Below are positions 24,419-53,939 of a stretch of DNA of 64,000 nt, piece by piece. Location of the stretch: contig NZ_SCFM01000016.1 of the NCBI RefSeq assembly GCF_004138295.1, positions 62,001 to 126,000 on the forward strand. Direction: 5' to 3'. Both the position numbers and the translations under genes were made by a program. Each line of letters opens with the position of its first letter. Positions within the stretch are counted from its first letter, which is position 1. The notes beneath the pieces were generated by a model. It searched no databases and was not told where the DNA came from. It saw only the letters and a list, made by a program, of their open reading frames with translations. Origin of the DNA: Ectobacillus funiculus (GTDB taxonomy: Bacteria > Bacillota > Bacilli > Bacillales > Bacillaceae_G).

Positions 24419-25459
24419 TTATCGGCTTATTAAGGGTGTTGAATCCCGAATGATTGGCTCTGTGAACATATGAGAAACCTGGTGGGGTTGATCCGGATTA
24501 TTAATTCTAGATAGCAGCATTTCTGCTGCTTTAATCCCCATCTCATAACTATAAATATGGACACTTGTTAAAGGTGGCTCTACAATACCTGCTTCTGGTC
24601 CATTATCAAAGCCACAGATGGCCACATCTTTAGGGATAGAGAGGTTCATGTTTTTCAGTGCCTTCATCATGTTTACCGCTATAAAATCATTGACACAGAC
24701 AAAAGCAGAAGGGAGGGTTGTAATTTTCTGCAGGCGATCTTCTATCCAGTCAGGCCTAAAGAAGAGAGAATCATCTCCCACTATACATTGTGAAAGTTCC
24801 AGAGGGATTCCGGCCTCTATTAAAGCACGATTAAAGCCGAGCCATCTCTCGTTAAAACTAAGACAATGACTATAATCTCCAATGAATCCAAAACTTGAGT
24901 ATCCGTTTTCAATTAGTTTTTTGGTAAGTTGATAGGTGCTGTGCTGATTCTCCATTAAGAGCAAATCGGCTTTGAATTTAGGATAACAAATGTTTGCGGC
25001 ACAATCTACAAAGATTGTAGGGATACCAAGACTCATAACGAGATTACTATAGTTTAAATCAAATAATTCAATACAGATAATACCGTCAACATTCGCCGCG
25101 TCGAAATTATTAGGTAAGGTTAAAGACTTTTGGTCAATATCTCTTACAATATGAAAGGACAGATTGTATCCTTGAGAACTAATTTGCTTTTCAAGCCCAC
25201 TTATCAATCTTGAACCAAAATGAGATGTGTTAGGCAAATTTGCTGTTAATAATGCGATATTCCCTGAATTCTTGGAGAGTAGCGTACTGCTATCCATAAG
25301 AGCAAATTGTTTATATTTTAACTCAATTGCTTTTTTTATGACCTTGTTTCGTGTTTCTTCAGGGATATTGTTGCTTCCGTTTAAAGCTTTGGAAGCCGTA
25401 TTTCTGGAAATCCCAAGCGCATCGGCGATATCTTGAATAGTTATTTTTTCCTTCGCCAT
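24419..25459 (-). CDS. LacI-family transcriptional regulator, likely of the fructan region
   Basis: 346 residues: an N-terminal LacI helix-turn-helix (residues 5-50, TIQDIADALGISRNTASKALNG) and a periplasmic-binding-protein-like effector domain ending in the usual CGFDNGPEAGIVEPPLTSV block. The hinge region (LKYKQFALMDSS) departs from the usual YRPN form. It is transcribed away from the secreted GH32 gene, with a 690-base shared upstream region holding two copies of TTTACAAATGTAAA. A repressor of the fructan genes, induced by a sugar from fructan breakdown, is the likely role. The ATG follows a weak ribosome site. Confidence 0.85.
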   Translation of the reverse strand: MAKEKITIQDIADALGISRNTASKALNGSNNIPEETRNKVIKKAIELKYKQFALMDSSTLLSKNSGNIALLTANLPNTSHFGSRLISGLEKQISSQGYNLSFHIVRDIDQKSLTLPNNFDAANVDGIICIELFDLNYSNLVMSLGIPTIFVDCAANICYPKFKADLLLMENQHSTYQLTKKLIENGYSSFGFIGDYSHCLSFNERWLGFNRALIEAGIPLELSQCIVGDDSLFFRPDWIEDRLQKITTLPSAFVCVNDFIAVNMMKALKNMNLSIPKDVAICGFDNGPEAGIVEPPLTSVHIYSYEMGIKAAEMLLSRINNPDQPHQVSHMFTEPIIRDSTPLISR

Positions 25460-25595
25460 GTATCTAAGTTCACCCTTGCTTTTTATAGTCTTTAATTAAG
25501 TAAAGATTTCAATAAGCATAATCTTATTTTGTTATATCAAATGTATATTAGATCGTGAAAAATGGCAACTGGAGTTTTACAAATAGACAATTTAG

Positions 25596-25609
25596 TTTAC
25601 AAATGTAAA
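25596..25609. promoter_or_regulatory. Palindrome TTTACAAATGTAAA, copy 1
   Basis: Six-base arms (TTTACA/TGTAAA) around AA. The same 14-mer recurs 172 bases downstream in the divergent LacI/GH32 region. It may be the operator of the LacI regulator or of the AraC-type regulator; which is not known. Confidence 0.5.
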
Positions 25610-25767
25610 ATAAAAAGAGTCGAAACGCCCCTTTGTTTGATGGTGTGTTAATAAGTTTTCTGTGTTTCTTCAGGAGTTTTCTTTAGATTATTTGTTATTG
25701 AAAATCTAAAAAACATTTAGTGTATAAAAAATATAATGATAGGATGATCATTTTGTTGAATTTTATA

Positions 25768-25781
25768 TTTACAAATGTAAA
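25768..25781. promoter_or_regulatory. Palindrome TTTACAAATGTAAA, copy 2
   Basis: Identical to copy 1. It lies 22 bases before a possible -35 (TTGACG, 25803-25808) with TAAATT 17 bases on. A half-site TTTTACAA follows at about 25790. The 320-base leader between this promoter and the GH32 start shows no gene. Confidence 0.5.
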
Positions 25782-26149: not shown

Positions 26150-29100
26150 ATGAAATCAACTTGGACAAAATGGACTTCTGTATTTGTGCCAACCGTACTT
26201 ATCATTGCCTCCGTGGGAACGCTTCTTGTTCATCCTGTGACAGGCAGGGCACTTGAATCGAATGAACCAGTAAGTAAAGAAACGAGGGAGGGATCGACCA
26301 TTTTTGAAAGCGTATCCAAAGCAGCTACTAATCTAACAGATTGGCAAATCAAAGGGAAAGGAACGCTAGAGGACACAGAACAGGGACTTTTGCTTACTTC
26401 AGAACCGAAAGAGAATGTTATGGCTATATCAAGTGTTATATCTGAAAATTTTATTTATGAAGCAGATGTAAAAGTAATAGACAAGAATGCTGATGCCACG
26501 TTAGTATTCCGTTCTAGTGAAGATGGCTGGGACTCATACATGCTGCAAATCGTTCCAAATGCAGGAATCATTCGTCTTCGTGACGCTCGTGATGACAAGA
26601 AATTAAAAGAGGAACGCCAAGTGACGCTACAAGAGGGCGGAATCTATCATCTAAAGGTGAAGGTGATAGGAGATAATATTAAAGTTTATTGGGGGAATAA
26701 GTATACTCCAATTATTGATATTAATGATACTACATATAAGAAGGGATTTCTTGGCCTTAATGTGTGGAATGGAGCAGCATTGTTTCAAAATGTAAAAGTG
26801 AGCGAACTTTCAACAAACCTAGGTTCATCCCTATATAAAGAAGGGAACTGGGAACCATCTATTAAAGGTCTGAAGGGAAGTGCTGTTGATGGTGTGAAAG
26901 CCAAACAAATCTACAATACTAGTACAAGTGACTTTGTGCTTGAAGGTAATGTTTTGTTCGATCAAAATTCATCAGAAGCAGCACTTGCATTTCGTACGAA
27001 TGAACAAGGAACAGCTGGTTACCAGGCCGCACTTATTAAAGAAGGAAGCACTGTCAAAGCACAATTGAAGAAAGCTGACGGTACGGTTCTCCAAACATCC
27101 GACCGCACCTATAAAAATCAAGAGGGTACCAAACACCACCTTGAAGTGATAACAAACGGCAATCAAATCGAGCTTTATGTTGATGGATATTCTGAGGCAG
27201 CTGTAAAGGTTACGGATATCAGTTATGAAACTGGATTTGCTGGGTTTACTGTAACATCGGGTTCTGCTTACTTCCAGGATATTTATCTTGTCCCAACATC
27301 CAGCTATTACAAAGAAAAGTATAGACCAGATTTTCATTATACTCCAGCCCGTGGCTCTGTAAGTGATCCGAATGGGCTAGTCTACTACGAAGGCGAGTAT
27401 CATTTATTCCATCAAGATGGCGGGACTTGGGCTCATGCAGTAAGTAAAGATATGGTGAATTGGAAACGCCTCCCCATTGCTTTGCCATGGAATGAGCACG
27501 GGCATGTTTGGTCCGGTTCTGCTGTAGCTGATCTGAATAATACATCCGGTTTATTCACTAATTCTGGTGGTAAAGGTCTTATTGCGTACTATACTTCCTT
27601 TAATCCAGATGAACCTAATGGTAATCAGCGTATTGGTCTTGCTTACAGTTCTGATCAGGGACGAACTTGGGAGTATTCAACGGAGCATCCAATTGTCATT
27701 GAAAATCCAGGCAAGAATGGAGAAGATCCAGGGGGCTGGGACTTCCGTGATCCTAAGGTAGTACGAGATGATGCAAACAATCGATGGGTCATGGTTGTAT
27801 CTGGAGGAGATCACATTCGCTTCTTTACTTCCACTAACCTAATTGATTGGAAGCTTACTGATAATTTTGGTTATGGAAATTATGTTCGCGGCGGTGTATG
27901 GGAATGCCCTGACCTCTTCGAACTTCAGGTAGACGGGACAGAGGAGAAAAAATGGGTCCTAATGATAAGCACAGGGGCAAATCCGAAGACACAAGGATCC
28001 GATGCGGAGTATTTTATAGGGCATTTGACAGCTGATGGCAAATTCATCAATGATAATGCAGCAGGTAAAGTGTTAAAAACGGATTACGGAAAAGAGTTCT
28101 ACGCCTCAATGTCCTTCTCTAATATGCCGGATAACCGCCGTGTGATGATGGCATGGATGACCAACTGGGATTATCCATTCGCTTTCCCGACTACAGGCTG
28201 GAAGGGAGAACTGACCATTCCAAGGGAAGTAAGATTGGTGAAAACGGACGAAGGGATAAGACTTGCACAAGTTCCAATTAAAGAACTACAGGCGATTCGC
28301 AGTACCATTTTCCAAACGCAGAACAAAATAGTAAATCCGGATAATGCTTCAAACTTGTTGAAAGGAATCTCTTCAGGAGCCTTTGAAATAGAAGCTGAGG
28401 TTGAAATTCCTTCTACTAGCACAATAACCGAATTTGGTTTTCAAGTTCGTGAAAGTACTGATCAAAAAACAGTCGTTGGATACAAAACAGCAGATCAGCA
28501 AATATTTGTTGACCGTGCTAGGTCAGGAGAAACTGATTTCTCCAGCCTTTTTACCACTCTACATGAAGCTCCATTAAAACCGGATAATAAACGTATTAAA
28601 ATGAATATATTTGTAGATGATTCGGCCATTGAAATATTTGCGAATGATGGAAAAGTTGTTTTTTCTGATGTTATTTTTCCTGATCCTTCAAGCCGTAGCA
28701 TGAACTTCTACACCAAGGGAGGCGATGTGAATATTGTCTCATTGAAAGTACATTCCCTTGCAAACACTTGGAATCAAAATGCGGATGAGGATACCAGAAT
28801 TGTAATGGATACAAATCAAAGAGAGATGAGTATTGGCGATGCTCTAACATTGTTTGCTTCCGCGGGGAACGGAAAAGGAAAGGGAACTCAGCCAATTATA
28901 TGGAAATCTAGCAATTCGGATGTGGTGAAGGTTGATTCCTCTACTAACTCCAAGGCGGTACTTAAAGCTGGAAGTAAAGGAGAAGCGATAATTACAGCCT
29001 CTACACCAAATGGAAAGACCTCAGCAAATGTCGTTGTAAGAGTGTACGAAGGTGAATTCTATACTAATCTGACTGGATGGAAATCAGATCTCTCTGCCTC

Positions 29101-29956
29101 CAAATGGACAATTACTGAAAACGGAATTCGTGGTACGTATACAAGTGATGCAAACTATATTGCAAAGAAAACTGCAGGAGACTTTACTTATGAAGCGGAT
29201 ATGATACTGGGACAAGCAGGAGGAGCAGGTTCCATTTTGTTCCGGGCAAGTGAAGATGGAAGAAGCGGCTATTATTTCAACCTTGATCCGAATATGAAGG
29301 CTTTCCGTCTTTTCTATAAGATTGACGGTGGCTTTGAGGAACGTATGGTAATTGGGAAAGTTCCTGCTTTTATTCAGCCTGGAAAGGTATATAAGGTGAA
29401 AATTGAAGCGAAAGGTCCTCACATCCAGATTTATGTGGATGGTCAGAAAATCATGGATTTACGGGATGGAACCTTTGCAGAAGGCCATTTTGGTTTAAAT
29501 GTATTTGGAGGTCAAGCTTCCTATCAGAATGTCAATGTCAGCAATGTATCAGAAGCCAACTTAGTCGTAACAAGCTTCACGAACGTAGCAACAGGCAAAG
29601 CAATTTATACTGCTAATTCTCAGAACGGTGAGCCTGTGACTGCGGCTGATGCAGATAAAGCTACAAGCTGGATTTTAATTCCAACAGGCGATGAGTATGG
29701 TTCCTATTCCATACGTACAGAGGGCGGCAAAGCGCTTGATTTGGATACAGGGCAAAATAAAATTCAACTGTATAACTATCTTGGTTATAATAATCAGCGC
29801 TGGATTATTACCAAAAATGATAATGGAACTGTAAGAATCACTTCTGTTCATAATGGCAAGCCACTCGAAATATCAGGAGAGGGAATTTTGGCACTTAATG
29901 ATGGGAATCCCGATCTAGAACGCCAGCAATGGATACTTTCGTCTGATATACAATAA
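26150..29956 (+). CDS. Secreted multi-domain GH32 fructan-active enzyme (levanase/inulinase or fructanotransferase)
   Basis: 1268 residues with an N-terminal signal (residues 1-34). Order: two LamG/DUF1080-like beta-sandwich carbohydrate-binding domains (about 50-220 and 225-385), the GH32 five-blade propeller and sandwich (385-870), a Big_2-type Ig domain (890-975), a third LamG-like domain (980-1130) and a ricin-type trefoil with QRW repeats (1135-1268). The catalytic triad is readable: D406 in SDPNG (usual NDPNG), D534 in RDPK and E585 in ECPD. The segment after the nucleophile is shortened (YHLFHQDGGTWAHAVS), lacking the usual WGxxHWGH stretch that closes the exo pocket. That fits an endo-acting or cyclising enzyme such as cycloinulo-oligosaccharide fructanotransferase. 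Exo-levanase remains possible. Confidence 0.88.
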   Translation: MKSTWTKWTSVFVPTVLIIASVGTLLVHPVTGRALESNEPVSKETREGSTIFESVSKAATNLTDWQIKGKGTLEDTEQGLLLTSEPKENVMAISSVISENFIYEADVKVIDKNADATLVFRSSEDGWDSYMLQIVPNAGIIRLRDARDDKKLKEERQVTLQEGGIYHLKVKVIGDNIKVYWGNKYTPIIDINDTTYKKGFLGLNVWNGAALFQNVKVSELSTNLGSSLYKEGNWEPSIKGLKGSAVDGVKAKQIYNTSTSDFVLEGNVLFDQNSSEAALAFRTNEQGTAGYQAALIKEGSTVKAQLKKADGTVLQTSDRTYKNQEGTKHHLEVITNGNQIELYVDGYSEAAVKVTDISYETGFAGFTVTSGSAYFQDIYLVPTSSYYKEKYRPDFHYTPARGSVSDPNGLVYYEGEYHLFHQDGGTWAHAVSKDMVNWKRLPIALPWNEHGHVWSGSAVADLNNTSGLFTNSGGKGLIAYYTSFNPDEPNGNQRIGLAYSSDQGRTWEYSTEHPIVIENPGKNGEDPGGWDFRDPKVVRDDANNRWVMVVSGGDHIRFFTSTNLIDWKLTDNFGYGNYVRGGVWECPDLFELQVDGTEEKKWVLMISTGANPKTQGSDAEYFIGHLTADGKFINDNAAGKVLKTDYGKEFYASMSFSNMPDNRRVMMAWMTNWDYPFAFPTTGWKGELTIPREVRLVKTDEGIRLAQVPIKELQAIRSTIFQTQNKIVNPDNASNLLKGISSGAFEIEAEVEIPSTSTITEFGFQVRESTDQKTVVGYKTADQQIFVDRARSGETDFSSLFTTLHEAPLKPDNKRIKMNIFVDDSAIEIFANDGKVVFSDVIFPDPSSRSMNFYTKGGDVNIVSLKVHSLANTWNQNADEDTRIVMDTNQREMSIGDALTLFASAGNGKGKGTQPIIWKSSNSDVVKVDSSTNSKAVLKAGSKGEAIITASTPNGKTSANVVVRVYEGEFYTNLTGWKSDLSASKWTITENGIRGTYTSDANYIAKKTAGDFTYEADMILGQAGGAGSILFRASEDGRSGYYFNLDPNMKAFRLFYKIDGGFEERMVIGKVPAFIQPGKVYKVKIEAKGPHIQIYVDGQKIMDLRDGTFAEGHFGLNVFGGQASYQNVNVSNVSEANLVVTSFTNVATGKAIYTANSQNGEPVTAADADKATSWILIPTGDEYGSYSIRTEGGKALDLDTGQNKIQLYNYLGYNNQRWIITKNDNGTVRITSVHNGKPLEISGEGILALNDGNPDLERQQWILSSDIQ

Positions 29957-30092: not shown

Positions 30093-30240
30093 GACTCAGC
30101 GCTGGAAATAATTAATACTGAAAAATTCCGTAGTAAGTTAGGAAGGTGTATGTTTCAATTAATATAATGATTTGAAAATGTAATCATCTCTTTTTTGATT
30201 ATATCATGTAGGGAGTTTCTTATTGTTTGGGGGGAGGTAC

Positions 30241-32037
30241 ATGTTTTTTTCTTTACGAAATCGTTTAATGCTTATATTCACCTTGCTGTTAACGATTCCA
30301 TTTATTATTTTATCAATCATTATCCCAAATTGGTTTACATCTATTATGAAAGAGCAGGTTCAGGATTCAACTGTAGAAATGATGGATCAGTACTCACTTT
30401 ATATTAATTCAGTAACGACACAAGCAGAAGAGTTTGGAAAACAGGTTCTTGTGAATCAAACAACGCAAGATTGGATGAAGCTAGAAAAGGATTCTGCTGG
30501 TTCGCTTAAGGAACAGAGTTTGTTAACGAAAAACCAACTCAAAAAGCAGTTGTCCTCCATCACAATTAATAATTCAAATGGAATTTCCATCTCCGTCGTT
30601 CTTAATGATGGGACAGGCATTTGGGGGAATAATCCTTCTCTGCAGAATACGCGGTGGTTTAAAGATTTTTCAGAGCATGATCAGCGATGGGTAAAAGCAC
30701 ATATAGATCCATTTCAGCCATTTCAAGGTATGCAAAATAGCTACCTTCTTCCGTTGTTTGATATGTATACATTTGAAAGGTATGGAGTGATTAAAGTGAA
30801 TGTTCCCACATCCTTGCTCCAAAATGCGTTAAATAAAATTACTCTTGGAAAAAATGGTCGTGTTTATTTGTTGGACAAGCAGGGGACAAATGTATTACTT
30901 GGTCAAGTAAAGACTCCTAAGGATGTATTACAAAAAAGCTTGGCAGAAATAACGAATGGTAAGAGGGAAAAAGGTTTAATAGAAACTGCTTATAAAGGAG
31001 AGCAGTATCTCGTTTTTTTTCAAAAGTTAAGAGTGGGTGATTGGATTTTAATTAGTGAAGTAACGAAGTCTGAATTGTTTTCAAAAATTGAGCAGTTGCA
31101 ACGAAATTTGTTGCTCATAAGCGCTATTATTTTTATTTTAACAATCATAGCTTCCTTTATGCTTTCTTCCAATATCGTAAGCCCTCTTGGCAAGCTTACA
31201 AAGGCCATGAGATTTGTTGAACGTGGTGAATTTGCTGGAGCCAAACGCTTTATGCCTACTATTAAATCTGATAATCATGAGGTTGGGTATGTTATAAAAA
31301 TGTTTAGTCAGACAATTGATCGATTAAAGCATTTGATAGAAACGGAATATGAGGCAAATATTCGCAGAAAAGATGCAGAATACAAAGCGTTATTATTACA
31401 AATCAATCCCCATTTTTTGAATAATACTCTTGAGATTATTGGAGGATTGGCTGCCCAGGGAAAAAGTAAGGACGTAATGAATGTGAGTGTTTATTTAGGC
31501 CGGATGATGAGATATTCATTGAATACCCAAAGTGATGTAGTGAACTTGGGAGAAGAAATCAATTATATCCGAAATTTCACTAATATATTAAAGCTGCGTT
31601 ATGAGGATACAATTTCTATCGTGATTGAAGAGGATGCTGAAACGAAAGAACTTCCGATCATTAAATTTATTCTACAGCCGCTCGTGGAAAACGCAGTTAA
31701 ATATGGTTTTGTAGGAAATAAAGAGGTTGAAATAAAAATCAAAACGGAGAAGGCTGGAAATCAAATATTTATTTCAGTAGAAGATAATGGTGTAGGAATG
31801 TCTGAAGAAGTGATCGCAAACTTATTGAACCAAGAAAAGAATAATGAAACAAGAAATGTATTAGAGAGCAGAGGAAGCAGTATTGGGCTTAAAAATGTAA
31901 TTGGGAGACTGCAGCTTTACTATGGCCGAAATTTTTCGTATGGAATTGAATCTGAAAAGAATATGGGAACAAGGATTACATTCCGCATAAACTTGCATAG
32001 GGGTGATAGCCATGATGAAAGTCATAATAACGGATGA
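30241..32037 (+). CDS. YesM-type sensor histidine kinase
   Basis: A membrane kinase of 599 residues. One membrane helix near residues 8-30 and another near 290-310 enclose a large extracellular dCache-like sensor. HAMP follows (SNIVSPLGKLTKAMRFVERG), then the His_kinase domain with phospho-acceptor H391 in INPHFLNN (the usual Tyr is Asn), the N-box LQPLVENAVKYGF and the G-box EDNGVGMS. Start ATG 30241 is chosen because the TTG at 30223 overlaps the GGGGGGAGG ribosome site. The response-regulator gene overlaps its end by 26 bases, so the two are translationally coupled. It probably senses fructan breakdown products, perhaps through the binding protein two genes on. Confidence 0.9.
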   Translation: MFFSLRNRLMLIFTLLLTIPFIILSIIIPNWFTSIMKEQVQDSTVEMMDQYSLYINSVTTQAEEFGKQVLVNQTTQDWMKLEKDSAGSLKEQSLLTKNQLKKQLSSITINNSNGISISVVLNDGTGIWGNNPSLQNTRWFKDFSEHDQRWVKAHIDPFQPFQGMQNSYLLPLFDMYTFERYGVIKVNVPTSLLQNALNKITLGKNGRVYLLDKQGTNVLLGQVKTPKDVLQKSLAEITNGKREKGLIETAYKGEQYLVFFQKLRVGDWILISEVTKSELFSKIEQLQRNLLLISAIIFILTIIASFMLSSNIVSPLGKLTKAMRFVERGEFAGAKRFMPTIKSDNHEVGYVIKMFSQTIDRLKHLIETEYEANIRRKDAEYKALLLQINPHFLNNTLEIIGGLAAQGKSKDVMNVSVYLGRMMRYSLNTQSDVVNLGEEINYIRNFTNILKLRYEDTISIVIEEDAETKELPIIKFILQPLVENAVKYGFVGNKEVEIKIKTEKAGNQIFISVEDNGVGMSEEVIANLLNQEKNNETRNVLESRGSSIGLKNVIGRLQLYYGRNFSYGIESEKNMGTRITFRINLHRGDSHDESHNNG

Positions 32038-33610
32038 TGAGATTCAAATTCGTAAGGGCTTACGAATGAAGGTGGATTGGGAGGAAGAGGGCTTTCAAAT
32101 TGTTGCAGAGGCTTCTGATGGTCAAGAGGCACTCGAATTGCTTCGAAGCATGGATGTTGATGTGGTCATTACAGATATGCGAATGCCTATTATGAATGGT
32201 ATTGAATTAGCTAAACATTGTCATGAACAATTTCCAAAAGTAAAAGTAATTGTTTTATCGGGATACTCTGATTTTGAATATGTGCGAGGTTCTATGAAGG
32301 AAGGGGTTAAAGACTATTTATTAAAGCCTGTTGCCCCTGATGAATTAGTAGAGGTGTTGAGAAAAATCCGTGCAGAAGTTGAGGATGAAAAGAGAAAGCA
32401 GGCTGAATCAACTCGGCTGCATCAGCTTGTTCACACACAGCTGCAACAAGTACAAGAGCAATATTTACTGCATTTAGTCAAAGGGGAGTGGCTGCAGCTT
32501 AATATAGTGATTGATAGATTGCATCAGCTGCAGCTAGAAAATCTTGCAACCGAAAATGCTGCAGTCCAGTTTGTAACAGTGGAAATTAGGAAGCGTGACG
32601 GGGGTTCAAATAGATTAAAGGAACTCTGGCTCCCTTTTCAGATGTTATGCAAAGAAATAGCGAAAGAGCATACAGGAACATATTCGTTTTACGACCCAAG
32701 CTATGCATTTGTCGTTCATTTTTTATATCTTGTAGATTCTAGGAGTCTGGATAGTGTTTCTAGTTTAGTCGAGAAGATTCAACAAAACGTAAAAACCTTT
32801 CTGAATCTAGAAACGGCAATAGGAATTGGGAATGCTGTGACAGGTCTTGCAGAGCTTAAAAATGGCTATATTTCAAGCTTACTTTCCTGGAGTCAAAGTC
32901 AATTGGGCTCAAAATCACAGGTGATCGATGCGACGGTCATGAAGGAAGAACTATTTAAGTTTTCACCTGATTTAGAGAAAAGGTTAACAAATGCGATTGA
33001 GAATGTGAATTTTGAGGCTTTTAAACAGAATATTCACAATGCGCTAGGAAACACCGAAGACCAATCCATTTTGTCCTTTTCATTTGTTGCTAATCGAGTA
33101 CTATTTTTATTAGGCTCACTGGCTAGAAAATATGATGCTGAAACAAAAGACATTCAGAACACGATGTGGAGTTGTCAGCAGAGCATTTGGGGGCTCAATT
33201 CTCAATGTAAAGTCATAGAGCAGCTCATCCAATTAGCACAGTCCATTATTGAAAAGGTGCGTCTGACCCGTTTTTCGAATGGAAAATTAATCATTGATAA
33301 TGTTCGACATTACTTGGATCAGCATTATGCAAGTGAAATCTCTCTTACTTCGTTATCTGAATTATTTCATATCAATAGTGCGTACTTATCAGAGACTTTT
33401 AAAAATTATGTTGGACAAAATTTTAGCGATTATCTTGTTAATTTGCGAATGGATAAAGCTCAGCAATTTCTGAAAGATAAAGAACTTAAAATCATTGATG
33501 TAGCAAACTTAGTGGGGTTTTCCAACTCCGGCTACTTTAGTACGGTATTTAAAAAACATTTTGGTCAAACACCTGTTGAATTCCGTAATTCCATAAATAC
33601 AGCTGAATGA
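32012..33610 (+). CDS. YesN-type response regulator with AraC DNA-binding domain
   Basis: 533 residues. The receiver domain (1-120) has the acidic pair TDDE at its start, phospho-acceptor D55 in VVITDMRMP, and K104 in LLKPV. A long middle helical region follows. The C-terminal AraC/XylS double helix-turn-helix (about 430-530) includes SLSELFHINSAYLSETFK and DVANLVGFSNSGYFSTVFKK. It is the partner of the preceding kinase and should activate the fructan transport and hydrolysis genes. The ATG at 32012 follows AGGGGTG and lies inside the kinase gene. The binding-protein gene follows 31 bases downstream. Confidence 0.92.
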   Translation: MMKVIITDDEIQIRKGLRMKVDWEEEGFQIVAEASDGQEALELLRSMDVDVVITDMRMPIMNGIELAKHCHEQFPKVKVIVLSGYSDFEYVRGSMKEGVKDYLLKPVAPDELVEVLRKIRAEVEDEKRKQAESTRLHQLVHTQLQQVQEQYLLHLVKGEWLQLNIVIDRLHQLQLENLATENAAVQFVTVEIRKRDGGSNRLKELWLPFQMLCKEIAKEHTGTYSFYDPSYAFVVHFLYLVDSRSLDSVSSLVEKIQQNVKTFLNLETAIGIGNAVTGLAELKNGYISSLLSWSQSQLGSKSQVIDATVMKEELFKFSPDLEKRLTNAIENVNFEAFKQNIHNALGNTEDQSILSFSFVANRVLFLLGSLARKYDAETKDIQNTMWSCQQSIWGLNSQCKVIEQLIQLAQSIIEKVRLTRFSNGKLIIDNVRHYLDQHYASEISLTSLSELFHINSAYLSETFKNYVGQNFSDYLVNLRMDKAQQFLKDKELKIIDVANLVGFSNSGYFSTVFKKHFGQTPVEFRNSINTAE

Positions 33611-35499: not shown

Positions 35500-36480
35500 T
35501 TGCAAAAATTATTAAATGTTAATGAAAAGGAAGTCGTACAACAGGCCGAAACTCAAAAGAAAACAGGATCGAAAATAAGGAGTCAAATTGATTATATAAA
35601 GAAGAATTATTTTCTTTATCTACTCATTGCACCAGCTGTTATTCTTACTATCATCTTTAAATATGTACCGATGTACGGGGCAATTATTGCTTTTAAAGAT
35701 TTTAGTCCGATGAAAGGTATTGCAGGCAGTGATTGGGTTGGGCTCAAGCATTTCAAGGACTTTCTTACTTCACCAAACTTCGTTCCGATTTTGATGAATA
35801 CCATCAAACTTAGCTTGTTTGGTCTCATACTTGGTTTTCCGGTACCAATTATATTGGCACTCATGCTGAATCAATTACGAAGAGCAGCTATTAAAAAGAA
35901 TATTCAACTCGTGTTATATGCACCAAATTTTATATCTGTGGTAGTTATTGTTGGGATGACATTCATTTTCTTATCACCAAACGGTCCAATTAATCACATT
36001 GTTACCTCTATAACAGGAGAACCAATCATGTTCATGTCAGACCCAGGATATTTCCGAACAGTCTATATTTTATCTGGAATTTGGCAAGCAGCAGGTTGGT
36101 CATCCATTATTTACGTAGCTGCATTAGCAAATGTTGATCCGGAATTACACAACGCAGCTACGATTGATGGAGCAAATCTTCTGCAAAGAATCATCCATAT
36201 CGACCTGCCGACGCTGAAACCATTAATGGCTATTACTCTTATTTTAGGTGCAGGCGGTATTATGGCGATCGGTTTTGAAAAAGCATATTTGATGCAAACA
36301 GCAATGAATTTACCAACATCTGAAATTATACCCACCTATGTATATAAGCAGGGTTTACAGGCAGGGGATTACGCTTATTCATCAGCCATTGGTTTATTCG
36401 ATTCAGTGATTAACGTTATCTTACTCGTTGTGGTGAATGTGGTCGTGAAGAAATTGAATGAAGGAGAAGGCTTATATTAA
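35500..36480 (+). CDS. CUT1 sugar ABC importer, LplB-type permease
   Basis: 326 residues with a hydrophilic N-terminus (about 35 residues) and six membrane segments. The EAA loop appears as NAATIDGANLLQRIIHIDLP. It belongs to the LplB/YteP group, which works with an LplC-type partner and a large LplA-type binding lipoprotein and imports di- or oligosaccharides. Start is TTG behind AGGAGGT. No ATPase gene accompanies the transporter, so the shared ATPase MsmX or a relative must serve it. It lies 17 bases before its partner permease. Confidence 0.92.
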   Translation: MQKLLNVNEKEVVQQAETQKKTGSKIRSQIDYIKKNYFLYLLIAPAVILTIIFKYVPMYGAIIAFKDFSPMKGIAGSDWVGLKHFKDFLTSPNFVPILMNTIKLSLFGLILGFPVPIILALMLNQLRRAAIKKNIQLVLYAPNFISVVVIVGMTFIFLSPNGPINHIVTSITGEPIMFMSDPGYFRTVYILSGIWQAAGWSSIIYVAALANVDPELHNAATIDGANLLQRIIHIDLPTLKPLMAITLILGAGGIMAIGFEKAYLMQTAMNLPTSEIIPTYVYKQGLQAGDYAYSSAIGLFDSVINVILLVVVNVVVKKLNEGEGLY

Positions 36481-40658: not shown

Positions 40659-40682
40659 TTCATTCTTTTAAAAAATAGGCAG

Positions 40683-46822: not shown

Positions 46823-47089
46823 ATGGTAGAAAAACAATTCGTAGTCATAGCAGATTCAGGAATTTATGCTCGTCCAGCAACAAAATTGGTACAAGCAGCC
46901 AGCAATTTCCATGCTGGTATTAACTTAGAATACAATGGTACAACAGTTAACTTAAAATCAGTTATGGGTGTTATGTCTTTGGGTATTCCCAAAAATGTTA
47001 CTATCAAAATTACTGCTGAAGGATCCGATGCAGCAAATGCAATCTCTACTTTACAAGACATAATGCAAAAAGAAGGTCTAGTAAAATAA
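46823..47089 (+). CDS. HPr/Crh-like protein with Tyr15 in place of His15
   Basis: 88 residues, aligned without gaps to HPr over its whole length. In HPr, His15 (GIHARPAT) takes phosphate from enzyme I. Here codon 46865-46867 is TAT and the motif reads GIYARPAT, so PTS phosphotransfer should be lost. Ser46 and its surroundings ([13 protein letters not shown]) are intact, which is where HPr kinase acts to create the CcpA co-repressor. This is the arrangement of B. subtilis Crh, which has Gln15. A regulatory-only CcpA partner is therefore inferred. The ribosome site AAAGGAGG is strong and the frame is complete. The nearest cre sites are 0.8 kb downstream. Confidence 0.93.
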
Positions 47090-47894: not shown

Positions 47895-47909
47895 ATGTAA
47901 ACGTTATCA
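47895..47909. promoter_or_regulatory. Perfect cre-like site (CcpA operator), copy 1
   Basis: ATGTAAACGTTATCA fits the consensus WTGNAANCGNWNNCW at every fixed position. It lies upstream of the GH172 pseudogene and the second importer, so carbon catabolite repression of that cluster is likely. Confidence 0.7.
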
Positions 47910-48034: not shown

Positions 48035-48178
48035 TAAAATATAAAAAGAAAATGAAGGAATAATCCCTTCATTACAAATGAAAAGTGTGTACCTTTTAAA
48101 ATTGCCTGATTAAATCATAACAAATTTATGAAAAAAGTAAAAGATTCTAATGTAAAGAATATGAAAGGGGAAAAAAGC

Positions 48179-48785
48179 ATGAACGTATGAGAACCAAATA
48201 GTCCTTTAGGGGGATTACCAATCATAAAAGATGCGCGTACAAAACGGGAGTCAAGTTGGGATCTTCCAGGTGTGAATCTAACTGGGGACGAAAACTATGT
48301 GATTTTAGATGCAGAAGGAAAAGGACACTATGTTGGATATGTGTTAAACATTGACAACTTTGATGCATCGAATTAAGAGTTTACATGGCCGGGAGAAGGG
48401 GATGATATGTTCTTTATCGATGGTGAACAATGGCCTCCATCCATTATCCATTCGTGGTACAGGGACTGAAGATTACTTTAATGCAGCGTGGGGATTCCCA
48501 AGTGGAGAGTATGCCGGGCCATATCATGGTATTTCATTAGGAAGAGGTGTACAGGAACACTTTGGAAAATGGAGCCTGTATCGTTTCCATATTGGAGACC
48601 CAATCCGTTTCAATACATCTATTCGAGCAACCATTGAACATGGGCATGCCAATGTTCAAGGAAATGAATTTTCAAGTGTAGCATATTGGTATCAGCTTGA
48701 GCCTCATAAACCATTGCCGGAACTTCCACCTGTGAAAGAACAGTTACCTAGAAGATGGCCAGAACACGACTTATGGGATAGATAA
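48179..48785 (+). pseudogene. Broken GH172 (DUF2961) difructose anhydride/fructofuranosidase-family gene
   Basis: Pieces of a DUF2961 protein in order: the start EPNSPLGGLPIIKDARTKRE, SWDLPG, then LDAEGKGHYVGYVLNIDNF, GEGDDMFFIDGEQWPPSI and the conserved GTGTEDYFNAAWGFPSGEY. Damage: a TGA as codon 4 (48188), an internal deletion after SWDLPG, a TAA at 48374 where a Gln would fit, and a frameshift near 48440-48452. DUF2961 founded GH172, whose characterised member makes and hydrolyses difructose anhydride I. That fits the fructan setting. The ribosome site and start survive. The binding-protein gene begins 36 bases after its end, so it once headed this operon. Confidence 0.75.
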
Positions 48786-48821: not shown

Positions 48822-50174
48822 TTGTTTAAAAGAAAAGCTATTGCAGGTTTGATGACATGCTCAATGCTTCTTTCTGCTTTCCTCACCGGATGTTCTGGTA
48901 CCCAGACTTCCGGTGATGCACAAAATAGTAAAGGTAACTCAAATGGTAATAGTGACAAATCTTTAACGGTACTTGTTGAAGGTGGGAGTCCTGCCTTTAA
49001 AGTAGCTGAGAAAACCGCAGATGAATTTAAAAAATCAACTGGTTACGAAGTGAAAATTGAGTCTGTTCCTTATGTCGGTGTGTATGACAAGCTGAAGGCA
49101 GAAGTTGCTTCACGAGCAGGGTCTTATGATGTTGCAACCATTGATATTCTCTGGTTTCCTTCACTTGCAAGTGGATTACTCCCTCTTGATAATCTAATGA
49201 CAGATGAAGTGAAAAACGATCTTTTCCCTGGACTTATCGATGGCGGTAGCTATAAAGGACACACATATGGAATGCCTGTTTGGACAAATGCGAAAACGTT
49301 AATTTACCGTAAAGATTTATTTGAAGATGAAGCTAATAAGAAAGCGTTTAAAGAACAGTATGGTTATGAACTTCAACCACCAAAAACGTGGAAGGAATAT
49401 GAAGATACAGCTAAGTTTTTTACACGTGATACAAATAGAGATGGACAAATTGATCAATATGGAACAACTGTTTTTGGCGCAAACAACGGTGATACAGTTG
49501 CGAGTTGGTTAGATATGGCGGCACAAGCGGGAGCCAAGCCATTAGTTGTGGATAATGGTAAGGTACTTATCAACACTAAACCTTATGTCCAAGCACTCGA
49601 ATTATTGACAAATATGTTAAAGAAGGATAAGTCTGTTCCTCCTGGTGCTCTTGAAATTTCTTCAGCAGAAACTGCTGAGTTATTCCAGAGTGGAAAGGAC
49701 GCAATGATGCTAGCTTGGGGACACTTTTATGTACCATCAAATGACCCGAGCAAATCAAAAGTTGCTGGTAAAGTTGGGGTTGCACCAATGATTGCTGGTT
49801 CTGAAGGAATTGGCGCTGTTCCAGGTCCATGGTATCAAGTGGTGCCGAAATCATCTAAGAAACAAGAAATTGCTAAGAAGTACATTCAATTTCTTTATGA
49901 TAAAAATGCATTATATATGGAAGCGCTAGGTGTAGCGGCAAGAAAATCAGTATTTGAAGAATACAGTAAAAAAGCAGGATATGAACATTTAGAACCACTA
50001 ATGGCAACTCTATCTGGGAAGCAGACTCAAAATCGTCCTGCTATTAAAGAATGGCAGCAAATTGAAAGTGAAGCATTAATTCCTGCTGTGCAATATGCAT
50101 TATCAGGCGAAAAAACACCGCAGGAAGCACTTGATTGGGCTGCAACTATTATTAAAGGTATTGTACAACAATAA
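48822..50174 (+). CDS. Sugar-binding lipoprotein of the second CUT1 importer
   Basis: 450 residues, lipobox LTGC, SBP_bac_1 family. Mature features: SLTVLVEGGSPAFKVAEKTA, the GSYDVATIDILWFPSLASG hinge loop, YGMPVWTNAKTLIYRKDLF, and MMLAWGHFYVPSN near the ligand site. TTG is the start, with AAGGGGG 7 bases before it. It follows the GH172 remnant and precedes two permeases and the GH91 gene. Its ligand is therefore predicted to be a difructose anhydride or short inulin fragment; this is inference from context. Confidence 0.9.
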   Translation: MFKRKAIAGLMTCSMLLSAFLTGCSGTQTSGDAQNSKGNSNGNSDKSLTVLVEGGSPAFKVAEKTADEFKKSTGYEVKIESVPYVGVYDKLKAEVASRAGSYDVATIDILWFPSLASGLLPLDNLMTDEVKNDLFPGLIDGGSYKGHTYGMPVWTNAKTLIYRKDLFEDEANKKAFKEQYGYELQPPKTWKEYEDTAKFFTRDTNRDGQIDQYGTTVFGANNGDTVASWLDMAAQAGAKPLVVDNGKVLINTKPYVQALELLTNMLKKDKSVPPGALEISSAETAELFQSGKDAMMLAWGHFYVPSNDPSKSKVAGKVGVAPMIAGSEGIGAVPGPWYQVVPKSSKKQEIAKKYIQFLYDKNALYMEALGVAARKSVFEEYSKKAGYEHLEPLMATLSGKQTQNRPAIKEWQQIESEALIPAVQYALSGEKTPQEALDWAATIIKGIVQQ

Positions 50175-50296: not shown

Positions 50297-50405
50297 TATC
50301 TATCGAAGAGAGGGAATAGATTATTAAGTAGATTTGCAACTGAATTCCCCGCTTATTTATTAAACAAAATAAAATGTTATTTCGATTTAGGAAGAGGTGG
50401 TCAAT

Positions 50406-51296
50406 ATGAAAATGAAAAATGGAATGCTAGCCTTCTTGTTTTTTTTGCCCGCAGCAGTTGTCTTACTCATGTTTTTCGTCTATCCGATTTTTCTACTCAT
50501 AAAAGACAGTCTATTTACGTTTGATTTAAATGATCCGTCCTTAAAAGAATTTGTAGGGATCAAACATTATATCGATACCTTTACCTCTGCACGTTTCCTA
50601 CAATCAGCACTTAATACGGTTATCTTTATCGTTGTGGCTGTAGGATTTGAGTTTACAATAGGTCTTATTTTAGCCTTATTGTTAAGTAATGGTTTTAAGG
50701 GCAGTCAAATTATTCGAACATTATTGTTAAGTCCATTAATGTTAGCTCCGTTAGTATCAGGATTAATATGGAAATTCATGCTCAATGATCAATTCGGTAT
50801 CATAAACTGGGGACTTTACAAACTGGGAATTCTTTCAGATCCTCATCAAATTTTATGGTTATCCGATTCAAAGTTTTCTCTATTGTCTACTATTATTGCA
50901 GATGTTTGGTTAACAACGCCGTTTATGATGCTTATTTTTCTTGCTGGGATTCAAGGAATTCCAAAGAGTTTATATGAATCGGCACAAATTGATGGTGCGA
51001 ATAAATGGCAAACATTTCGCTATATTATCATCCCTTCTTTAGTACCAGTTGCGACTGTTGCGCTCGTCATTCGAATCATTGATGCAGCAAGAACATTTGA
51101 CATTGTATGGGTATTAACGCAAGGAGGACCCGGTTTTTCATCTGAAGTATTAAGTACGTATATGTACAAAACGTTAACAAGGTATGGCGCTGTTGGTGAA
51201 TCTAGTGCAATGGCAGTTATCTTTATTGTCCTGCTGCTTGCATTAAGTTCTTTCTTTATGACAAGAATGTGGTCTCCAGGTAAAAAACATGCTTAA
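50406..51296 (+). CDS. Second CUT1 importer, MalF/UgpA-type permease
   Basis: 296 residues, six membrane segments and the EAA loop YESAQIDGANKWQTFRYIIIP. The start is ATG 50406, 5 bases after GAGGTGG; an in-frame GTG at 50397 lies within the ribosome site. It forms the channel with the next gene's product, 21 bases downstream. No ATPase gene is linked. Confidence 0.92.
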   Translation: MKMKNGMLAFLFFLPAAVVLLMFFVYPIFLLIKDSLFTFDLNDPSLKEFVGIKHYIDTFTSARFLQSALNTVIFIVVAVGFEFTIGLILALLLSNGFKGSQIIRTLLLSPLMLAPLVSGLIWKFMLNDQFGIINWGLYKLGILSDPHQILWLSDSKFSLLSTIIADVWLTTPFMMLIFLAGIQGIPKSLYESAQIDGANKWQTFRYIIIPSLVPVATVALVIRIIDAARTFDIVWVLTQGGPGFSSEVLSTYMYKTLTRYGAVGESSAMAVIFIVLLLALSSFFMTRMWSPGKKHA

Positions 51297-51317
51297 TAAT
51301 GGAGAGGTGATTTCAAT

Positions 51318-52214
51318 ATGTTAGATAGACTTTTAAGTAATTCTAGACCAACAAAAACACCAGTGATAAATAAGATAGTAGAAAAGCTGAGTTTAAAAAA
51401 TACTTGGCAGCTATTTGTTATCTTATTGACTTGTATGATTGCTCTTGTATTTTTAGGGCCATATATTTATTTACTTCTTACTTCTTTAAAGCCATCTGCA
51501 GAAGCAGTAAGTTCACCACCCACATTATGGCCTTCAAAATTTTCTTTAGAAAATTACTTTGCAATGTTTAAACAATTACCTATCGGAAACTATTTCCTTA
51601 ACAGTTTAATTACAGCAATAATTAGTATGGTGTTAAGTGTCTTTATAGGATCATTGGCAGCTTACGGTTTTTCACGATTTTCATCAAGAGTGAGTAATAT
51701 CTTTTTGCTTATAACGTTAGCGATACGTATGGTTCCAATGATTAGCATTGCGATACCAATGTATATGATTATCAATGATATGGGATTAGTTGATACAAAA
51801 CTTGCGTTAATTTTAGTTTATACCAGCATTAATGTTCCTTTTGCAATCTGGATGATGATTGGTTTCTTCGACGGAATTTCCAAGGAGCTTGATGAAGCAG
51901 CTCGTATTGATGGATGCAGCCGTTTGGGAGCGTTTCTTCGTATTATTCTCCCTGTATCGCTTCCGGGACTTGCCACGACAGCTATATTTACCTTTATGTT
52001 AGCGTGGAATGACTTTTTATTTGCCTTACTTTTAACGAGTACAAATACTAAAACGGCAACAGTAGGGATTTCACAGTTTTTAACAGCTTATAATCTTGAT
52101 TTGGGACCTATGACAGCAGCTGCTATTACATTTAGCTTACCGGTTATGCTTTTTTCACTTTTAGTTCAACGGTATATCGTAAGCGGAATGACTCTGGGAG
52201 CTGTAAAGGAATAG
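51318..52214 (+). CDS. Second CUT1 importer, MalG/UgpE-type permease
   Basis: 298 residues with an unusually long hydrophilic N-terminal stretch (about 30 residues) before the first membrane segment. The EAA loop reads DEAARIDGCSRLGAFLRIILP and the C-terminus ends GMTLGAVKE, as usual for this subunit. GGAGAGGTG precedes the ATG. It is separated from the GH91 gene by 380 bases. Confidence 0.92.
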   Translation: MLDRLLSNSRPTKTPVINKIVEKLSLKNTWQLFVILLTCMIALVFLGPYIYLLLTSLKPSAEAVSSPPTLWPSKFSLENYFAMFKQLPIGNYFLNSLITAIISMVLSVFIGSLAAYGFSRFSSRVSNIFLLITLAIRMVPMISIAIPMYMIINDMGLVDTKLALILVYTSINVPFAIWMMIGFFDGISKELDEAARIDGCSRLGAFLRIILPVSLPGLATTAIFTFMLAWNDFLFALLLTSTNTKTATVGISQFLTAYNLDLGPMTAAAITFSLPVMLFSLLVQRYIVSGMTLGAVKE

Positions 52215-52595
52215 AAGCGTCTTACTAATAAATAACTACGACAACTATACCTTTCATTTCTAGAGATTACTAATAAACAATATATACAGGAATTAATCTA
52301 ATAGGAGTCACCGTATTATTTTGAGAAAAATGCGCAATAACTAAACACTTCCTATGTGGGTGTTTACTAGGATTGGTAATCGGTAATCCTGTTCAAATCC
52401 TATTAATAAGAAATTATCAATGGACAAACATATCACAAAATCCACAATATAAGGTATCTATATAAGCATTCAATAATATAAACATTATCAGAAAAGTTGC
52501 AGGAAAAGTACGAATTCGTAAGGCTTTACTTCTAGCTATATCAAGGAAAAAGTAGTTTATGAACAAACACACTAAATTGATAGGAGAATTTACTT
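52215..52595 (+). other. Gap before the GH91 gene
   Basis: No gene is seen. A weak inverted repeat (AGGATT ... AATCCT, about 52368-52396) lies here without a T run. The GH91 gene probably has its own promoter in this stretch, but I cannot point to convincing boxes. Confidence 0.4.
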
Positions 52596-53939
52596 ATGGC
52601 TAGTAAAAATTATTACGACGTAACAGAGTGGCCTGTCGGTAATCCGTATGAGGATATTGGTGAGGTAATCAATAGCATTATAGCAGATATTAAAAGTAGG
52701 CAAACGGACACTGATGTGAATAAAGGCGGAAAGCCGGGTGCGGTTATCTATATTCCACCGGGAGATTATCATCTTGTCAGTCAAGTAGTTATAGACATCA
52801 GTTATCTTAAAATTATGGGTTCTGGACACGGGTTTACATCTTCGAGTATTCGTTTTAATACTTCTGGGAATGAATGGGCGGATTTGCATGAATTGTGGCC
52901 GGGAGGAAGTCGCATACTCGTAGATATTCCCCTAGAAGTAAATGACGAGGAATATAAAGGAGCTGCATTTTATGTTGAACGAAGTGGAAATCCCCGAATA
53001 AGTTCGGTAGAGTTTTCTGACTTTTGTATTGATGGTTTGCATTTTATTGAAGATGGTTCAGGAGCAACAAATCCGGAAAACACATACACTAACGGGAAAA
53101 CGGGTATTTATGTTGCAAGTGCTTGTGACTCATTTCGGATTACAGGCATGGGGTTTGTGTATTTAGAGCATGGAATTACTATTTATCATGCAGATGCACT
53201 GACTATACATGATAATTTCATAGCTGAATGTGGTAACTGTATAGAACTACGAGGTTGGGGACAGGCTTCAAAAATAACCGATAACTTGATAGGAGCCGGT
53301 TTTAAAGGATATTCAATTTACGCTCAAAATTTTGGTGGACTTTTGATTACAGCGAATAATGTTTTTCCACGAGGTGCGAGCAGTATCTATTTTGATGGTG
53401 TGACACGTTCCAGTATCACAAATAATAGACTTCATTCATTTTATCCAGGAATGGTGGTATTCAGGGAAAATTGTTCGGAAAACTTGGTTTCTTCAAATCA
53501 CTTTTTACGTGACCATGAACCCTGGACTCCTTTTGTGGGAATAGACAATGGTTTAGATGATTTGTATGGTCTCCTCTATATCAGTGGCAATAATAATTCT
53601 GTAATTGCTAATCACTTTTCTGAAGTAATTAATACTCAGAACATCAAGCCGGTAGGTGCAACACCTGTAATCATACGTATTGTTTCGGGTAATGGAAATT
53701 ATATTTCTAATAATCATGTTGTTGCCACGGAGGTTCATGCCAAGATAAGTGATTCTTGTTTCTCTGCGCAAGTAGACGCTTTGTTGACTACCGAAGCATC
53801 AGAGCCGCTTACCGTAACAACAGTATTGGTAGAAAAAGAATCGCTTCAAAATACGATTCTTGATTCGGGAAGTGATGCACAGGTTGTTATGGACAAGACT
53901 GTAAATGCATTCAGAGCCACTCCAACGCCAGGAGCATAA
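52596..53939 (+). CDS. GH91 difructose anhydride enzyme, probably cytoplasmic DFA hydrolase
   Basis: 447 residues matching GH91 from end to end (inulin fructotransferases forming DFA I or DFA III, and DFA III hydrolase): YDVTEWPVGNPYEDIGEVIN, then PGAVIYIPPGDYHL and the beta-helix core. D206 and E217 (HDNFIAECGNCIE) fall at the spacing of the catalytic Asp/Glu known for the family (D233/E244 in a Bacillus inulin fructotransferase; D207/E218 in an Arthrobacter DFA III hydrolase; recalled, not looked up). There is no signal peptide; the start follows AGGAG at 9 bases. Secreted fructotransferases have one, so hydrolysis of imported DFA to inulobiose is preferred. The GH32 fructosidase and fructokinase could finish the pathway. 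Confidence 0.88.
   Translation: MASKNYYDVTEWPVGNPYEDIGEVINSIIADIKSRQTDTDVNKGGKPGAVIYIPPGDYHLVSQVVIDISYLKIMGSGHGFTSSSIRFNTSGNEWADLHELWPGGSRILVDIPLEVNDEEYKGAAFYVERSGNPRISSVEFSDFCIDGLHFIEDGSGATNPENTYTNGKTGIYVASACDSFRITGMGFVYLEHGITIYHADALTIHDNFIAECGNCIELRGWGQASKITDNLIGAGFKGYSIYAQNFGGLLITANNVFPRGASSIYFDGVTRSSITNNRLHSFYPGMVVFRENCSENLVSSNHFLRDHEPWTPFVGIDNGLDDLYGLLYISGNNNSVIANHFSEVINTQNIKPVGATPVIIRIVSGNGNYISNNHVVATEVHAKISDSCFSAQVDALLTTEASEPLTVTTVLVEKESLQNTILDSGSDAQVVMDKTVNAFRATPTPGA

What the first reader, a model, noticed from the sequence alone, without database searches (positions are those of the whole stretch)
24419..53939. Two-armed fructan and difructose-anhydride utilisation region
The region combines a secreted GH32 enzyme with five accessory domains, two importers, a cytoplasmic GH32, a fructokinase, a cytoplasmic GH91, a broken GH172, LacI, YesMN and a Crh-like protein. 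GH91 and GH172 are both tied to difructose anhydrides, so the region seems built for cyclic as well as linear fructans. I know of no described Bacillus locus with this set.
Basis: partly seen in the sequence, partly recalled or inferred. Interest (0 to 1): 0.8.

Follow-up and report, generated by a model that had tools for sequence, protein, structure and literature searches.

The report
Fructan locus with a roaming gene
A Bacillus relative carries neighbouring gene sets that look built to eat both linear and ring-shaped fructose sugars, and its ring-opening enzyme gene is nearly letter-for-letter the same in many other bacterial species although the genes around it are not, which suggests that this one gene has recently travelled by itself.

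Summary
In detail: window 24419-53939 encodes the listed genes. GH91 is a leaderless DFA III hydrolase type (73% identical to solved AcDFA-IIIase, lid kept). The decayed GH172 belongs to a subtype whose six intact relatives examined lack the lysine that αFFase1 uses for DFA I. An intact αFFase1-type GH172 lies just past the window edge, behind its own importer. The unit is therefore a fructan arm, a DFA III arm and a DFA I arm; Bacillus taeanensis has a similar arrangement. The parts match published Blautia (DFA III) and Bifidobacterium dentium (DFA I) clusters.

The surprise is evolutionary. The GH91 gene alone is at least 95% identical in DNA in 27 of 34 Bacillales loci. It exceeds EF-Tu DNA identity in 136 of 136 pairs of 17 genomes (median 96.8% against 79.9%); the operon's binding-protein gene has 62.6% (105 pairs). 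In five Bacillales GH91 loci, this one included, a broken GH172 remnant sits directly before that gene. I read this as recent spread of GH91, largely as a single gene, onto older alpha-fructoside operons.

The parts
24419..25459 (-). LacI-family regulator of the fructan arm (divergent)
   Evidence: Pfam LacI + Peripla_BP_3; 62-64% relatives beside the same arm in two Paenibacillus genomes
26150..29956 (+). Secreted multidomain GH32 (exo-inulinase/levanase type), 1268 aa
   Evidence: GH32N/GH32C, three PF06439 stretches, ricin lectin; best solved match exo-inulinase 8i12; residues 963-1132 match the CBM66 module of levanase (4b1m, 4azz)
30223..32037 (+). YesM-type histidine kinase with dCache sensor
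   Evidence: Pfam
32003..33610 (+). YesN-type response regulator (AraC HTH)
   Evidence: Pfam
33642..34976 (+). Importer 1 binding protein
   Evidence: SBP_bac_1
35500..36480 (+). Importer 1 permease a
   Evidence: BPD_transp_1
36498..37379 (+). Importer 1 permease b
   Evidence: BPD_transp_1
37438..39060 (+). Second binding protein (540 aa)
   Evidence: SBP_bac_1 (one search lists downstream genes, this one); relatives of 67-81% in 20 of 34 GH91-bearing Bacillales genomes
39177..40658 (+). Cytoplasmic GH32 beta-fructofuranosidase
   Evidence: GH32N/C, no leader by eye; best solved match exo-inulinase 8i12
40771..41805 (+). PfkB-family fructokinase
   Evidence: PfkB; NCBIfam best match fructokinase, below its cut-off
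41869..42984 (+). Gfo/Idh/MocA oxidoreductase of unknown role
   Evidence: Pfam; 88% and 77% relatives in the same arm of two other genomes
43160..44932 (+). MsbA-type ABC exporter half A
   Evidence: ABC_membrane + ABC_tran; 76% relative in the same place in L215
44913..46697 (+). MsbA-type ABC exporter half B
   Evidence: 80% relative
46823..47089 (+). HPr-like protein with Tyr15, Ser46
   Evidence: PTS-HPr, alignment
47896..47909 (+). Full match to a CcpA cre consensus upstream of the DFA III operon (a second, one mismatch, 48021-48034)
   Evidence: the consensus itself is recalled
48160..48785 (+). Type-B GH172 remnant (large deletion, stop, frameshift)
48822..50174 (+). Importer 2 binding protein (proposed DFA III)
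   Evidence: SBP_bac_1; relatives beside GH91 in 66 of 80 loci at E<=1e-60
50397..51296 (+). Importer 2 permease a
51318..52214 (+). Importer 2 permease b
52487..54421 (+). Near-identical block shared with other genomes (longest extents left and right, from different genomes): GH91 plus flanks
52596..53939 (+). GH91, DFA III hydrolase type, no leader
   Evidence: 5zks full-length match, E 1.4e-221, 327 identical residues over 446 columns
54129..54470 (-). IS3-type transposase fragment (rve), shared in part with several GH91 flanks
55155..58475 (+). Second histidine kinase / response regulator pair
60059..61081 (+). LacI-family regulator of the DFA I arm
61126..64000 (+). DFA I arm importer: binding protein 61126-62445, permease 62503-63396, second permease from 63416 past the window end; intact GH172 follows at C56:126296-127708 (L005:6296-7708)

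Best explanation
A fructose-polymer and difructose-anhydride utilisation region with three import arms. Arm 1: a secreted, fructan-binding GH32 trims fructan outside; importer 1 brings in the products; a cytoplasmic GH32 and a fructokinase finish them. Arm 2: importer 2 takes up DFA III, GH91 opens it to inulobiose, and GH32 splits that to fructose. Arm 3 (mostly beyond the window): importer 3 plus an intact alphaFFase1-type GH172 do the same for DFA I. Arm 3's own GH32 and ROK kinase are reduced to a fused remnant and arm 2 has none, so the GH32 and fructokinase at 39177-41805 probably serve all three (the genome has four further full GH32 genes elsewhere). The cell has no ring-forming GH91 of its own and would scavenge rings made by others or by heat. 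The GH91 gene reached this operon recently by horizontal transfer of little more than the gene itself; the operon's older type-B GH172 then decayed. Shown: gene content, family membership of GH91 and of the intact GH172, conserved partnership with importer 2, near-identity of GH91 against diverged neighbours, GH172 decay. Inferred: the sugars carried by each importer, the shared use of one GH32, the order of GH91 arrival and GH172 loss.
For: GH91: full-length match to AcDFA-IIIase, 73% identity, lid segment aligned without gaps (20 of 30 identical); inulin fructotransferases align only to about residue 380-407 and more weakly. Importer 2 relatives stand within 10 kb of GH91 in 65 of 80 loci at E<=1e-60 for all three proteins; in 398 genomes of the class the binding protein had a relative at E<=1e-100 in 2, this genome and a GH91-bearing one. 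Intact GH172: full-length match to 7v1v, all ten tested active-site or calcium residues kept, +1-subsite E85 and K147 included. DUF2961 genes occur in 17 of 34 GH91-bearing genomes against 21 of 397 others of the class (Fisher p 2e-11). Transfer: GH91 median DNA identity 96.8% and 4-fold-site identity 91.9% over 136 pairs of 17 Bacillales genomes, EF-Tu 79.9% and 60.4%, importer binding protein 62.6% and 30.4% (105 pairs); GH91 above EF-Tu in 136 of 136. GH91 G+C stays 37.6-39.5% where locus G+C runs 32.7-48.9%. 31 of 43 GH91 rows form an unresolved, short-branched clade over nine named genera and two families.
Against: No growth, expression or enzyme data. Importer specificities rest on gene neighbourhood. 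GH91-bearing genomes were the 80 best of 251 hits, so near-copies are over-represented, and the 16 genomes compared with this one were my choice. The GH91 tree is not random by family: Bacillaceae need 4 changes and Paenibacillaceae 3 where shuffles average 13.5, so transfers between the two families may be few (half of its inner branches are unresolved). The importer genes too are 90-98% identical between some Paenibacillus loci, so the rest of the operon moves as well, only less widely. GH172 loss before GH91 arrival is not excluded. Of two Arthrobacter genomes checked as possible ring makers, neither had a second GH91.
Confidence: 0.8

Rival explanations
1. GH91 is not recently transferred but under extreme nucleotide-level constraint, so that it looks nearly identical everywhere.
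For: Protein identity is high even across phyla (76-79% in Arthrobacter, Lachnospiraceae and enterobacteria).
Against: 4-fold sites of GH91 fall to 27-36% identity in comparisons with Arthrobacter and Lactococcus (L041/L046 27%, L046/L078 30%, window/L046 31%, window/L049 36%), so synonymous sites do drift. Non-coding flanks beyond the gene are shared as well, up to 109 bases upstream of the window's gene and about 480 downstream.
Confidence: 0.05
2. GH91 moves as part of an IS3-type or composite transposon, not by general recombination.
For: An rve-type transposase fragment and a DDE transposase fragment follow GH91 in the window, and part of the first is inside the shared block of several genomes.
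Against: The ends of the shared block differ between genome pairs, most falling within about 50 bases of the start codon and 30 of the stop codon. I found no complete element or terminal repeats around GH91, though I did not scan every flank for transposases.
Confidence: 0.2
3. GH91 here is an inulin fructotransferase acting on linear fructans that are imported, making DFA III inside.
For: Same family; published DFA-IIIases also act on nystose and inulin in vitro (PMC11538131, read).
Against: Closest to DFA-IIIase with the lid that the literature ties to hydrolysis (PMC11538131); no leader; constant pairing with an importer.
Confidence: 0.07
4. The arms are unrelated sugar loci that happen to lie together.
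For: The fructan arm lies far from GH91 or on another contig in most genomes located: of the 20 genomes with a close second-binding-protein relative, only L011 shows it within about 10 kb of GH91. The alphaFFase1-type GH172 lies within 20 kb of GH91 in 3 of the 9 other genomes that have it.
Against: DFA I and DFA III arms adjoin in this genome, B. taeanensis, Paenibacillus L016 and L020, and co-occurrence of DUF2961 with GH91 is far above background.
Confidence: 0.15

Closest known systems
DFA III degradation cluster of Blautia species (PMC11538131)
   Same: GH91 DFA-IIIase type, GH32, ABC importer, sugar kinase in some strains; import then opening to inulobiose then fructose.
   Different: Here importer 2 and GH91 have no GH32 or kinase of their own between them; a fructan arm and a DFA I arm adjoin; a dead GH172 heads the operon.
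DFA I operon of Bifidobacterium dentium, alphaFFase1 BBDE_2040 (PMC8605356)
   Same: LacI regulator, ABC importer, GH172 with the same active-site residues, GH32 beside it.
   Different: Here the GH32 and ROK kinase of the arm are reduced to one fused fragment (L005:8020-8505).
Three-stage inulin use by Arthrobacter and Streptomyces davawensis (PMC8605356, section 15)
   Same: Importer plus intracellular hydrolases of DFA III or DFA I.
   Different: No ring-forming GH91 was found in this genome; it looks like a consumer only.
Levanase SacC-type secreted GH32 with CBM66
   Same: GH32 plus CBM66-like module (levanase chains 4b1m, 4azz).
   Different: 1268 residues with two further PF06439 stretches before the GH32 domain and a ricin-type domain after it.

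Membership tests
GH91 DFA III hydrolase (DFA-IIIase) | Sequence of the DFA-IIIase branch (over 65% among characterised members, PMC11538131) | tested here: met
   73% to AcDFA-IIIase 5zks over the full length
GH91 DFA III hydrolase (DFA-IIIase) | Lid segment absent from inulin fructotransferases | tested here: met
   Residues 379-408 align without gap to the segment missing from the construct 5zky; 20 of 30 identical
GH91 DFA III hydrolase (DFA-IIIase) | Intracellular (no signal peptide) | tested here: met
   N-terminus has no hydrophobic leader, by eye; no predictor was run
GH91 DFA III hydrolase (DFA-IIIase) | Opens DFA III to inulobiose | not testable with these tools
   Needs an assay
GH172 DFA I synthase/hydrolase (alphaFFase1), intact gene outside the window | Catalytic Glu270/Glu291 and the -1 and +1 residues (E85, K147, Y187, W267, D292, W298), calcium ligands N31 and D33 | tested here: met
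   10 of 10 residues kept (numbering from PMC8605356)
GH172 DFA I synthase/hydrolase (alphaFFase1), remnant in the window | Intact frame and +1-subsite residues | tested here: not met
   Frame broken; six intact type-B relatives lack K147 (gap in 6 of 6) and five of six lack E85
Blautia-type DFA III cluster | GH91, ABC importer and GH32 next to each other | tested here: inconclusive
   GH91 and importer adjoin; nearest intact cytoplasmic GH32 is 12 kb upstream in another arm
Crh (HPr-like corepressor) | No His15, Ser46 kept | tested here: met
   Tyr15 (not Gln as in Crh), Ser46 kept (against recalled B. subtilis sequences)
Crh (HPr-like corepressor) | Closest to Crh rather than HPr | tested here: not met
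   Best NCBIfam model is HPr PRK13780, above its cut-off (132 against 110 bits); the genome has a separate better Crh candidate with Gln15 (L096)
Cycloinulooligosaccharide fructanotransferase | Ring-forming activity of the secreted GH32 | not testable with these tools
   Solved matches are exo-inulinases, levanases, invertases and, more weakly, levan fructotransferase

The most novel reading that the evidence does not exclude
The DFA III hydrolase gene behaves as a gene-sized travelling trait of soil Bacillales: copies drawn again and again from one slowly changing source land at the end of pre-existing GH172-importer operons (after a permease, a GH32 or a kinase gene), make the old GH172 dispensable so that it decays, and turn the host into a thief of the semi-private rings that other bacteria make from inulin.
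Probability: 0.35. Interest if true: 0.78.

Novelty: new variant of a known kind. Interest (0 to 1): 0.62.

Why it matters
DFA I and DFA III use is described for gut bacteria and actinobacteria; here is a Bacillaceae region that seems to combine both with linear-fructan use. More important is the pattern in GH91: a catabolic enzyme gene that is about 97% identical in DNA between genomes of two families and many genera, more alike than EF-Tu, is a distribution I would expect of a drug-resistance gene rather than of a sugar hydrolase. It makes testable how a single enzyme gene can spread ahead of its operon, what selects it, and whether it displaces an older, unrelated enzyme (GH172) for cyclic sugars.

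Tried and rejected
Considered and rejected: that the window's GH172 supplies DFA I use (broken, wrong subtype). That a secreted GH91 in the genome makes DFA III (only one GH91 match). That GH91 travels on phages or viral contigs (no match). That it sits on known plasmids of Bacillales: 84 plasmid records match, none above 80% identity, 70 of them Rhizobium. That contamination explains the near-identity: the gene lies inside contigs with different neighbours, among them records titled complete genome (L023, L028) and chromosome (L016). That a discrete mobile element with fixed ends carries it: block ends differ between pairs. That all three arms are shared by relatives of the same genus: 0 of 3 other genus genomes have the GH91, and 0 of 18 other family genomes have the Gfo/Idh/MocA gene at E<=1e-60. 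Promoter and terminator scans gave no excess over shuffles. A promoter of arm 2 was not resolved. The role of the exporter pair and the oxidoreductase stayed open; of the ten regions mapped the exporter pair recurs in one and the oxidoreductase at 77-88% in two; the HPr-like gene in none.

Literature seen: PMC11538131 parts 1-3 of 6 of the text; PMC8605356 passages and sections 13, 14, 15; PMC8718956, PMC11311677 and the papers only in listings. Seven searches of the library listed no paper on transfer of GH91 or on a Bacillus DFA locus; subscription journals are mostly not held.


Full report
1. What is there. The secreted GH32 (1268 residues) has a hydrophobic leader by eye, two PF06439 stretches, the GH32 catalytic and C-terminal domains, a weak Ig-like stretch, a third PF06439 stretch that aligns with the CBM66 module of levanase, and a ricin-type lectin domain. 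Its best solved relative is an exo-inulinase (8i12). The cytoplasmic GH32 matches the same structure more strongly.

2. The GH91. The 447-residue protein matches AcDFA-IIIase (5zks) over its whole length with 327 identical residues in 446 columns, including the lid (residues 379-408, 20 of 30 identical) that the published work ties to hydrolysis of DFA III (PMC11538131). Inulin fructotransferases align more weakly and without the lid. It has no leader. It is the only GH91 match in this genome. Of the 35 Bacillales genomes (this one and 34 others), each has one close copy; four also have a distant relative (28-33% identity, one with stops), and none has one in the range the literature gives for inulin fructotransferases (41-49%). 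These bacteria thus look like consumers of DFA III, not makers. The two Arthrobacter genomes in the same call also showed one copy each.

3. Two GH172 genes. The remnant before importer 2 keeps pieces of the C-terminal half in two frames plus a short N-terminal piece, with a stop and most of the N-terminal half gone. Six intact relatives of this subtype (type B) all lack the lysine K147 of the DFA I +1 subsite and five of six lack E85, though they keep the catalytic pair. The intact GH172 at C56:126296-127708, found by reading past the window, matches alphaFFase1 over its length and keeps 10 of 10 tested residues. It follows a LacI gene and an importer; after it comes a fused fragment of a GH32 start and a ROK kinase end. 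In B. taeanensis a full-length GH32 and a PfkB kinase gene stand at that place. So in this genome the DFA I arm lacks its own finishing enzymes, and arm 2 has none. I infer that the GH32 and fructokinase at 39177-41805 serve all arms; four further full GH32 genes elsewhere could also serve. A MalK-type ATPase that could power the importers, none of which has its own, lies at C56:133996-135111.

4. Conservation of the arms. Of 80 GH91 loci fetched, the best of 251, 65 have relatives of all three importer-2 proteins at E<=1e-60 within the fetched stretch. The binding protein of importer 2 had a relative at E<=1e-100 in 2 of 398 genomes of the class, this one and G385, whose neighbourhood also holds a GH91. 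The fructan arm's second binding protein has relatives of 67% or more in 20 of 34 GH91-bearing genomes; in Bacillus sp. MM2020_1 the arm from histidine kinase to second exporter is present in the same order at 70-88%, without the HPr-like gene. DUF2961 genes occur in 17 of 34 GH91-bearing genomes against 21 of 397 others. The alphaFFase1-type occurs in 9 of those 34 and adjoins GH91 (within 20 kb) in 3 of the 9 and in this genome. The class sample is not matched for genome size or lineage, so the contrast is rough.

5. The GH91 gene has moved almost alone. Against this gene, 27 of 34 Bacillales loci are at least 95% identical in DNA over all 1344 bases. For this genome and 16 that I chose, all 136 pairs show GH91 above EF-Tu in DNA identity: medians 96.8% against 79.9%; 4-fold sites 91.9% against 60.4%; the importer's binding-protein gene has 62.6% and 30.4% (105 pairs, two genomes lacking it). 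Two non-Bacillales genomes of the same script (L041, L046) were left out of the pair counts, and for L078 no EF-Tu was recovered over the cut-off. GH91 keeps a G+C of 37.6-39.5% in loci of 32.7-48.9%. Block ends cluster close to the gene, and the nearest matched upstream gene is a permease in 10, a GH32 in 14, a GH32/ROK-type piece in 5, a regulator in 3 and none in 2 of 34 loci. In a tree of 43 rows, 31 (15 Paenibacillaceae, 15 Bacillaceae, this one; nine named genera) form one clade without resolved order at its base. Against a picture of free exchange: family labels cluster on the tree (3-4 changes, shuffles 13.5), and its bootstrap had not settled. Other parts of the operon are also 90-98% identical between some Paenibacillus loci. 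So GH91 is the farthest-travelled part of an operon that moves in pieces. No vehicle was found: no phage or viral-contig relative, plasmid copies only at 60-80% identity and mostly in Rhizobium, 7 of 5426 E. coli genomes at 60-80%.

6. GH172 decays beside GH91. Type-B remnants occur in the window, L010, L012, L019 and L021, in each directly upstream of the importer-2 binding-protein gene, and short C-terminal remnants in three Arthrobacter loci (L051, L060, L074), whose neighbours I did not examine. None of these eight is intact. L012 and L060 were found only with the window remnant as query and are short (21 and 41 residues). Two other loci, L016 and L041, hold GH172 genes of other subtypes. 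One type-B relative without GH91 within the fetched stretch (L139) has the order GH172, binding protein, permease, permease. This fits an ancestral GH172-importer operon onto which GH91 was added, after which GH172 became dispensable. The order of events is inferred.

7. Regulation. A full cre-like match and a one-mismatch match lie upstream of the dead GH172 and importer 2; the window has 16 strand matches at up to one mismatch (10 distinct places) against a mean of 4.9 in shuffles; none without mismatch in L005. The HPr-like protein with Tyr15 and Ser46 could act only as a CcpA corepressor (inference).

8. Verdict. The region is real. It belongs to a known kind, with a new combination of arms and an unusual evolutionary history of one gene.

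Noticed in passing
window 46823-47089; L096-L110: This genome has 16 HPr-fold genes: by alignment 5 with His15, 6 with Gln15 (Crh-like), 1 with Tyr15 (window) and 4 divergent. Some Gln15 copies sit beside sugar genes: alpha-amylase and ROK kinase (L100), a sugar-binding protein (L102), a xylose-isomerase-like protein (L104), pyruvate kinase (L105). An expanded set of Crh-like proteins tied to single sugar loci would be worth a study of its own.
   Followed up: partly
window 1339-3978 (-): Group II intron: two Rfam matches flank a reverse transcriptase frame at 1478-3295.
   Followed up: no
window 15309-23642 (+): A 2777-residue protein with GH94 and glucoamylase-like domains, in make-up like a cyclic beta-glucan synthase (recalled): possibly a maker of another cyclic sugar next door.
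   Followed up: no
window 5128-8331 (+): P450-reductase fusion of the CYP102 kind (name recalled; domains).
   Followed up: no
window 54129-55140: Two decayed transposase pieces (rve and DDE type) directly after GH91; part of the first lies inside the block shared with other genomes.
   Followed up: partly
window 47100-48160: About 1 kb without a plausible gene between the HPr-like gene and the GH172 remnant; looks like decayed coding DNA.
   Followed up: no
L010, L207-L208: In B. taeanensis the DFA III operon is rearranged: permeases and GH91 precede the GH172 remnant and binding protein, which are followed by a 29-residue permease piece and a 75-residue GH32 piece.
   Followed up: no
plasmids collection: GH91 relatives sit on 84 plasmid records, 70 of Rhizobium, 30 of the 84 predicted conjugative.
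   Followed up: no
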